Shown here: positions 12,073-13,291 of the stretch, piece by piece | Position numbering within the stretch: the stretch's first letter is position 1 | Layout: each line of letters starts with the position of its first letter | Origin: a virus | Reading direction: 5' to 3' (one strand) | DNA: 22,418 nt | Virus record (IMG/VR): IMGVR_UViG_3300010354_000737 | Coordinates: 1 to 22,418 of that record | Notes under the pieces: generated by a model | Seen by the model: only the letters and a program-made list of their open reading frames with translations | Database searches by the model: none | What the model was told of the DNA's origin: nothing | Position numbers and translations under genes: made by a program

Positions 12073-12792
12073 TTATGCGAAAAAACTTGCTAAGCCCTCA
12101 AGAACAACATCGCTTTCAACACCTGTAACTGGATTCTTAACTTTAATTGTGTGAGATAGTCTTGGCATTGTTTCAAAGAATTTTTCAATATCCTTAAACT
12201 GCGAAGAGTTCATTGATTCTAGAAATTCAGACATCTCTTTTTTAGTTACATCTGAAGAAGACCAAACTTCTTCTTCCGTAAAAATTTTATCAATACAAGA
12301 TGCAATCAATTCAAATGATTGATCCATTGCATTTTTGTCATTAAAATCAAAATTGTTTTTGATAAACTGATCTAATGATGGATACTTCATTTCCATCATA
12401 ATAGAATTATCGACTTTAATCCTATTCGTATGCTCTTCATTTTTCTGAACTTTAATATCATCTAGATTGATCTTCATTGGAACTTGAGTCTCACCGTCAT
12501 CAGGACAAATAACGTTTACTTCAAGTTCTTCCCCAACTGACTTACCACGGATATTTAAAAACAAATATTCAATATCAAAAGTAGGAAGTGATTCTACCTT
12601 AACTTCTTTGGTAAGAATACAACTTTTAATAACAGATTTAATTGCTGTAGTAATTTGCTTAGTGTCTTCACTCTCTAAAGCAATTACAAGTAATTTTTCT
12701 TCTTTAACAAGAAAAGGTCTATATTGAATTGTTTCTCCAGTTGATGGCAATTCAAGTTCATATGTTGGTGTAGCAATCTTTGGTAAAGGCAT
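12073..12792 (-). CDS. 26: gp26-like baseplate hub subunit
   Basis: 239 aa (T4 gp26 is 208 aa). The N-terminus P-T-Y-E-L-E-L-P-S-T-G-E-T-I-Q-Y-R-P-F is followed by V-K-E-E-K-L-L-V-I-A, the hallmark opening of the T4 base plate protein family. A middle beta-rich segment includes a C-P-D-D-G-E stretch around residue 95. The C-terminus is helical and ends with V-T-G-V-E-S-D-V-V-L-E-G-L-A-S-F-F. gp26 is a hub component required for tail assembly. It is the first gene of the minus-strand hub run, with a perfect late promoter 28 bases upstream of its ATG, which suits late expression. Confidence 0.88.
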   Translation of the reverse strand: MPLPKIATPTYELELPSTGETIQYRPFLVKEEKLLVIALESEDTKQITTAIKSVIKSCILTKEVKVESLPTFDIEYLFLNIRGKSVGEELEVNVICPDDGETQVPMKINLDDIKVQKNEEHTNRIKVDNSIMMEMKYPSLDQFIKNNFDFNDKNAMDQSFELIASCIDKIFTEEEVWSSSDVTKKEMSEFLESMNSSQFKDIEKFFETMPRLSHTIKVKNPVTGVESDVVLEGLASFFA

Positions 12793-12819: not shown

Positions 12820-12827
12820 TATTTATA
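12820..12827 (-). promoter_or_regulatory. T4-type late promoter, TATAAATA
   Basis: The minus strand reads CCTATAAATAATC, an exact match to the classic T4 late promoter core. It lies 28 bases before the gp26 ATG and would drive gp26, gp51 and the two tape-measure-like genes. Recognition would require gp55, gp33 and the sliding clamp; gp33 is encoded in this window. Confidence 0.85.
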
Positions 12828-12881
12828 GGAGGTGGTCAGAACAAGAAGTGTCCACCCCATGCATAAAGGGAGTTTCAGTGG

Positions 12882-12890
12882 TGCTATAAT
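12882..12890 (+). promoter_or_regulatory. Extended -10 host-type promoter for the two-gene cassette
   Basis: TGC-TATAAT is a perfect -10 hexamer with the TGn extension. No good -35 box is found at 16-18 bases, as is usual for extended -10 promoters. The expected start site is near 12897, about 15 bases before the ATG at 12912. This would be read by unmodified host RNA polymerase, so the cassette may be transcribed early in infection, unlike the late genes around it. Confidence 0.65.
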
Positions 12891-12911
12891 AACTACAGTT
12901 CAAACAAAACA

Positions 12912-13157
12912 ATGAAAGGACTCCTCAACTTTTATCTTGCATCTGCACTGACTGTAACCACGGCAGCTACTGGTGCTTGCTTTGTGTGGTATGTTCAAGA
13001 ATATGATGCTGCTTATAAGTACCATAAAGTTGCCCCCGATGTTTCACAAATTCATCGTAACAATTCTCTTTGGTTGGGTCTCTGGGGCGGTCTTTATGGT
13101 CTGACTGGTGTGGTGAGTGCAATCGGACTTTCTCAGGGTCTCAAGAAAGAGCAATGA
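12912..13157 (+). CDS. Small membrane protein with two transmembrane segments (cassette gene 1)
   Basis: 81 aa. Hydrophobic segments lie at about 5-27 and 52-75, the second rich in Gly/Leu/Trp; they are joined by a polar loop with Y-D-A-A-Y-K-Y-H-K. The C-terminus is L-K-K-E-Q. No Shine-Dalgarno sequence is visible; the leader is only about 15 bases. The stop overlaps the next start as ATGA. Codon use and base composition (I estimate about 46% GC) differ from the AT-rich flanking genes, which suggests separate origin. Function is unknown. Size and topology recall phage superinfection-immunity proteins or holin-type proteins, but no motif supports either. Confidence 0.8.
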   Translation: MKGLLNFYLASALTVTTAATGACFVWYVQEYDAAYKYHKVAPDVSQIHRNNSLWLGLWGGLYGLTGVVSAIGLSQGLKKEQ

Positions 13158-13267
13158 AATCATTTTTAATCTGTCTGTTACTATCCCCTCTCCTACTTTA
13201 TAGTGCTGGATTTGTAACTCTAACTGTCCTACAAAATATAAAAGTAGAACTTCCTACTCCAAACTGA
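13154..13267 (+). CDS. Tiny single-pass membrane protein (cassette gene 2)
   Basis: 37 aa. Starts at the ATG that overlaps the previous gene's TGA, so its translation is probably coupled. A hydrophobic segment spans about residues 4-27 (F-L-I-C-L-L-L-S-P-L-L-L-Y), followed by a short polar tail ending E-L-P-T-P-N. It could be a membrane anchor or a cleaved signal peptide, but at this length an anchor is more likely. An in-frame upstream start at 13070 would read out of frame through gene 1 and is not supported. The terminator stem begins at base 13266, within the stop codon. Confidence 0.65.
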   Translation: MKSFLICLLLSPLLLYSAGFVTLTVLQNIKVELPTPN

Positions 13268-13291
13268 AGGTCATTATGACCTTCTTTTTTT
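13266..13291 (+). terminator. Intrinsic terminator ending the two-gene cassette
   Basis: GAAGGTCA (13266-13273), loop TTA, TGACCTTC (13277-13284), then seven T residues: a perfect 8-bp stem with a U tract in the plus direction. It begins inside the stop codon of the 37-aa gene. The T run overlaps the stop codon of the opposing gp54 gene, so it isolates cassette transcripts from the gp54 antisense strand. Confidence 0.88.

What the first reader, a model, noticed from the sequence alone, without database searches (positions are those of the whole stretch)
12882..13291. Moron-like cassette of two coupled small membrane proteins wedged among late genes
Seen: an extended -10 promoter, two ATGA-overlapped genes (81 aa with two membrane segments, 37 aa with one), and a perfect terminator, all within 410 bases on the plus strand between the minus-strand late genes 26 and 54. 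Base composition is clearly richer in GC. Known: independently transcribed 'moron' units in phages often carry host-modifying functions such as superinfection exclusion. Inference: this pair may act early at the host membrane.
Basis: partly seen in the sequence, partly recalled or inferred. Interest (0 to 1): 0.72.

Follow-up and report, generated by a model that had tools for sequence, protein, structure and literature searches.

The report
Swappable membrane-protein cassette in cyanophages
Between two tail genes, some viruses of photosynthetic bacteria carry a small plug-in unit with its own on and off signals that makes a pair of tiny membrane proteins; related viruses lack the unit or carry a different version of it in exactly the same spot, as expected for a tool that manipulates or guards the host membrane.

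Summary
A self-contained plus-strand unit lies between gp26 and the tail-tube-like gene: TGcTATAAT, orf81 (two membrane helices), an ATGA-coupled orf37 (one), and a terminator. The GC claim is weak: orf81 is 44.7% GC but the unit is only at the 77th percentile. The same promoter module precedes cobS and small unknown genes across cultured cyanophages, so it is a phage-wide promoter class, not a late promoter.

The junction is empty in 73 of 79 tabulated relatives, and the unit is inserted precisely elsewhere. Three cassette types (A as here; B homologous to A; C probably a remote relative) occupy the same slot with the same signals. In one pair with 100% identical gp26 and 99.7% identical gp54 ends, type A is swapped for type C. 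All three types encode a two-helix protein with HRxN-x6-W; A and C add a one-helix partner.

No database family matches. Function is inferred. I favour a superinfection-exclusion-like membrane guard (about 0.4) over modulation of a host membrane complex; a sole holin is unlikely. "Moron-like insertion" is supported; "early" is likely but unmeasured.

The parts
12820..12827 (-). late promoter of gp26 (TATAAATA); left boundary of the inserted unit
   Evidence: sequence; late motif NATAAATA of cyanomyoviruses (PMC2984593); kept in empty junctions
12833..12854 (+). upstream dyad TGGTCAGAACAAGAAGTGTCCA, 30 bases before the -10
   Evidence: conserved at the same spacing in cassette types A, B and C and before cobS and other genes
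12882..12890 (+). extended -10 TGcTATAAT, no -35 match; leader ACTACAGTTCAAACAAA follows to about 12908
12912..13157 (+). orf81, 81-aa membrane protein, helical hairpin, HRxN-x6-W at the start of helix 2
   Evidence: 43 homologous loci, pN/pS 0.11, AF2 pLDDT 92, motif
13154..13267 (+). orf37, 37-aa single-helix membrane protein with conserved C-terminal VELPTPN, ATGA overlap with orf81
   Evidence: hydropathy and charge
13266..13291 (+). intrinsic terminator; its T-run overlaps the stop codon of the tail-tube gene; right boundary of the unit
   Evidence: GAGGGTC..GACCCTC-T7 at the same place in most relatives
12073..12792 (-). flank: gp26, T4-like baseplate hub gene
   Evidence: Pfam T4_baseplate E 8e-78, phrog_150
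   Evidence: phrog_45 E 9e-30, Pfam Phage_TTP_2

Best explanation
A mobile, exchangeable cargo ('moron') cassette of T4-like cyanophages. SHOWN: a fixed frame of dyad, -10 promoter and terminator sits in the gp26/tail-tube junction. The frame is absent from most sampled relatives and carries one of three membrane-protein modules. The frame's promoter is the class found before cobS and small unknown phage genes. INFERRED: the unit is expressed before the late phase by host RNA polymerase, helped by a factor that binds the dyad. Orf81 goes into the cytoplasmic (or thylakoid) membrane as a hairpin with both ends inside and the loop that carries the HRxN-x6-W region outside. Orf37 is a single-pass partner whose proline-rich tail lies on the same outer side. 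INFERRED, most likely function: the pair guards or modifies the host inner membrane against DNA entry by co-infecting phages (superinfection exclusion), with the module types as different specificities.
For: Empty, filled and swapped states with precise edges. Three types in one slot under the same signals: A and B homologous (hhalign E 2.3e-12), C sharing hairpin and motif. Type A also found at other places in other phages with the dyad at the same spacing. Promoter class shared with cobS (86 of 119 sites) and small unknown genes. Strong purifying selection on orf81. A family member in a prophage-like region of a Cyanobiaceae genome; temperate phages commonly carry exclusion genes (general knowledge). 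Size resembles T4 Imm (83 aa, immunity to superinfection; annotation). The cassette is dispensable (most sampled relatives lack it), as expected for a competition gene.
Against: No sequence similarity to T4 Imm and no significant hit in PADLOC, Pfam, NCBIfam or PHROGs. Near-invariance within type A is unusual for an arms-race gene and would also fit a conserved host target. The cassette types are not tied to the neighbouring tail genes. Infection timing and phenotype were not measured. Topology rests on hydropathy and charge only. The relation of C to A is weak by profile comparison (P 0.006).
Confidence: 0.42

Rival explanations
1. The pair modulates a conserved host membrane complex (photosynthetic or respiratory electron transport, a transporter, or an NDH- or b6f-like complex), acting like an auxiliary metabolic gene.
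For: Orf81 is more strongly conserved than gp26 (pN/pS 0.11 against 0.17). In L042 and L048 the cassette lies beside a porin, an hli-like gene and a peroxiredoxin, and in L048 also a phosphate-binding-protein gene. Its promoter class is shared with cobS. The 37-aa partner has the size of small photosystem or b6f subunits (general knowledge).
Against: No homologue in sampled chromosomes of picocyanobacteria other than in a prophage-like region. Exchange between dissimilar module types in one slot is not typical of metabolic cargo.
Confidence: 0.33
2. A lysis module: orf81 is a class II-like holin (two helices, both ends inside, charged C-terminus) and orf37 a regulator.
For: Size, predicted topology and charged tail; a sub-threshold Pfam hit of type B to a holin family (E 0.087); holins are often diverse in sequence (general knowledge).
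Against: Most sampled relatives lack the cassette yet must lyse. The promoter is not of the late TATAAATA type. The loop between the helices is long (about 28 residues) and conserved.
Confidence: 0.1
3. Ordinary non-essential early cargo with another host-takeover role at the membrane (for example blocking a host defence sensor or secretion).
For: Non-late promoter class, small membrane proteins, swap between types; many small early phage proteins act this way (general knowledge).
Against: Nothing here points to a particular target; no match in the defence-system library.
Confidence: 0.15

Closest known systems
Phage morons (independently transcribed accessory units of tailed phages)
   Same: own promoter and terminator, opposite strand to the flanking late genes, precise presence or absence between conserved genes
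   Different: in a T4-like cyanophage; the slot accepts three module types under one conserved promoter frame, which also uses a genome-wide phage promoter class
T4 Imm (83 aa, superinfection immunity)
   Same: length, small membrane protein, proposed action at the inner membrane
   Different: no sequence similarity; no demonstrated function; has a coupled single-helix partner; lies in a different genome position
Cyanophage early regulatory element reported for Syn9 (Doron et al. 2016, ISME J; abstract recalled from memory, paper not held)
   Same: a phage-specific element controlling early genes, said to be conserved among T4-like cyanophages; dyad-promoter sites were found in Syn9 here
   Different: identity of that element with the dyad could not be checked
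Class II holins
   Same: two helices, both ends predicted inside, charged C-terminus
   Different: non-late promoter class, dispensable, long conserved loop

Membership tests
phage moron | own promoter and terminator distinct from flanking genes | tested here: met
   (sequence signals only)
phage moron | present in some and precisely absent in other close relatives | tested here: met
phage moron | expressed independently of the flanking genes during infection or lysogeny | not testable with these tools
   needs RNA-seq; the sequence supports a non-late promoter class
T4 Imm superinfection immunity family | sequence homology to T4 Imm | tested here: not met
   hhalign of A1 against T4 Imm gives four aligned columns, E 0.44
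T4 Imm superinfection immunity family | blocks DNA entry of superinfecting phage | not testable with these tools
class II holin | two transmembrane helices, N and C termini inside | tested here: inconclusive
   hydropathy and charge agree; AF2 hairpin; topology not measured
class II holin | expressed with late genes and required for lysis | tested here: inconclusive
   promoter not of the late type and most sampled relatives lack the unit, which argues against; expression itself not measured
auxiliary metabolic gene | homologue in the cyanobacterial host chromosome | tested here: not met
   no relative in genome contigs by pattern scan; 1 of 400 Cyanobiaceae genomes, in a prophage-like region
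cyanophage early promoter class (Syn9 early regulatory element) | same motif as the published element, active early | not testable with these tools
   paper not held

The most novel reading that the evidence does not exclude
T4-like cyanophages have a dedicated exchange slot between gp26 and the tail-tube gene, in which a fixed promoter-dyad-terminator frame carries interchangeable two-protein membrane modules (shared HRxN-x6-W motif) that define superinfection-exclusion types. This would be an immunity-group system for lytic cyanophages.
Probability: 0.3. Interest if true: 0.8.

Novelty: new variant of a known kind. Interest (0 to 1): 0.58.

Why it matters
Superinfection exclusion is poorly known in cyanophages, and how early and middle genes are controlled in these MotA/AsiA-less T4 relatives was still described as unclear in a 2010 review (PMC2984593). 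This locus gives small, testable membrane-protein pairs, natural near-isogenic swap pairs (L293 and L049) and a promoter element that can be scored across genomes. If the modules set exclusion types, they would shape which cyanophages can co-infect a cell.

Tried and rejected
Host origin: pattern scan of GTDB contigs and HMM search of 400 Cyanobiaceae genomes gave no chromosomal relative except one inside a prophage-like region. The matches inside 469-aa frames at E 0.003-0.005 were treated as noise. Known families: nothing significant in Pfam, PHROGs, NCBIfam, PADLOC or PDB sequences. Fold search gave only generic helical hairpins, best E 0.49 in both libraries. T4 Imm: no similarity. Cultured phages: no orf81, type B or type C relative. 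Dyad as an RNA hairpin: considered because of compensatory variants (TGTGCCA/TGGCACA in L034, TGGCCA/TGGCCA in L029), but it lies upstream of the -10, and outside the orf81 family the arms pair only slightly better than arms re-dealt between sequences (0.528 against 0.499; 80 of 2000 shuffles reach it), so a protein-binding operator fits better. Literature: the Syn9 transcriptome paper is not held; the papers read confirm only the lack of MotA/AsiA and the late motif.

Full report
Identity and observation. The window is an IMG/VR record of 22418 bases with T4-like cyanophage tail genes; its best matches are cyanophages such as S-SM2 and Bellamy. GC is raised mainly in orf81 (44.7%); the whole unit is unremarkable (77th percentile).

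Both genes are real. Orf81 has 43 relatives in IMG/VR (58-96% identity), a mean column identity of 87% in 25 representatives, and a pN/pS of about 0.11, against 0.17 for gp26, 0.22 for gp4 and 0.58 for orf37. Orf37 evolves fast but ends in E[LF]PTPN in most members and keeps the coupled start. AF2 gives a confident helical hairpin for orf81 (pLDDT 92). Hydropathy and charge suggest both ends inside.

The promoter. Upstream of the -10 lies a dyad, TGGACAGAn5AAGTGTCCA, at a nearly fixed distance in all orf81 loci where it can be seen. It sits between the gp26 late promoter TATAAATA and the -10. Even in L042 and L048, where the cassette is in a different genome region, the dyad keeps its distance from the -10. 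In these, the first gene is cobS at 86 sites, the rest being orf81 and small unknown genes, and a related dyad precedes the -10 at the same spacing. The cobS position is confirmed in annotated Bellamy, S-SM2, SynMITS9220M01, S-SCSM1 and S-T4. A weight matrix of dyad plus -10 finds six sites in Syn9 and two in S-SM2 at scores of 18 or more, against 0.7 and 0.3 in shuffles; by the annotation they lie upstream of or near the start of cobS, gp150 or its homologue, a helicase and others. So the unit uses a phage-wide, non-late promoter class. From memory, Doron et al. 2016 reported a novel early regulatory element in Syn9; the paper is not held, so identity with this dyad is unverified. Marine cyanomyoviruses lack MotA and AsiA, and their early/middle control was described as unclear (PMC2984593).

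Presence and absence. In cultured relatives the junction is 30-43 bases. The inserts proved to be a type A unit (L187, same contig as L007), a type B unit (L188) and a type C unit (L234); L228 has only 86 bases. Alignments of filled and empty loci (L021/L191, L278/L192) place the insert between the gp26 late promoter (GATTATTTAT) and the gp54 stop; both ends carry TTTAT.

Three module types. Type A: orf81 plus orf37. Type B: 95-97 aa, homologous to A (HMM E 2e-7 against a best shuffled control of 0.17; hhalign E 2.3e-12), seven loci. Type C: 77-82 aa, in 23 of 24 loci with a coupled 40-45-aa single-helix protein that has a proline-containing tail. All seven B and 24 C loci lie in the same slot with the dyad and the -10, and most with the terminator. 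C is only weakly similar to A by profile (P 0.006), but has the same predicted hairpin and, like every A (43 of 43) and B (7 of 7) member, the motif HRxN-x6-W at the start of helix 2 (16 of 16; about 1e-4 per shuffled protein; the motif was chosen after the fact). In L293 (C) and L049 (A) gp26 is 100% identical over 717 bases and gp54 99.7% over 700, with unrelated ORFs between dyad and terminator; two further pairs (L296/L038, L276/L187) show the same at 93-97%. This is direct evidence of cassette exchange. Of the 43 orf81 loci, 39 have the slot neighbours; L040 and L041 have the unit beside gp51, and L042 and L048 in a region with glycosyltransferases, a porin, an hli-like gene and a peroxiredoxin.

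Wider family. A 97-aa relative occurs in one of 400 Cyanobiaceae genomes, inside a region with phage-type ligase, helicase, RecE and HNH genes, so probably a prophage.

Mechanism. The anatomy (small dispensable membrane pair, non-late promoter, exchangeable types in one slot, a member in a prophage-like region) fits a competition gene such as superinfection exclusion best; the strong conservation of orf81 and the neighbourhood in L042 and L048 keep a host membrane complex as a serious rival. A sole holin is unlikely because most sampled relatives lack the unit. None of these functions was tested.

Noticed in passing
Syn9 DQ149023 about 44827, 49131, 127544, 130405, 148795, 162105; S-SM2 112292, 114624: Dyad plus -10 promoter sites define a small regulon (cobS, a peptidase-like gene, a helicase, small unknown genes) in cultured cyanophages; a candidate for their early or middle control.
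   Followed up: partly
Syn9 44804 and 148771 (L172, L174): Two annotated Syn9 genes (gp61, gp183) begin upstream of a dyad-type promoter, so their true starts may lie further downstream.
   Followed up: no
L042 4318-11723 and L048 4316-11726: Phage gene cluster with glycosyltransferases, an SLH/OprB-type porin, an hli-like gene, a peroxiredoxin and a C39-type peptidase (plus a phosphate-binding-protein gene in L048) around the relocated cassette; the porin is 67% identical to one in a MAG labelled Microbacteriaceae (L169), which looks misbinned.
   Followed up: partly
L300 (G240:C1:716000-735999): Prophage-like region in a Cyanobiaceae genome with ligase, helicase, RecE, HNH and a 97-aa HRxN membrane protein.
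   Followed up: partly
L189, junction upstream of gp26: An empty junction contains a short inverted repeat GCACATTAAAGAATGTGC followed by CTATAAA, possibly a remnant or a terminator.
   Followed up: no
window 12820-12827: gp26 has its own late promoter TATAAATA facing away from the cassette, so the two promoters are back to back with the dyad between them.
   Followed up: yes
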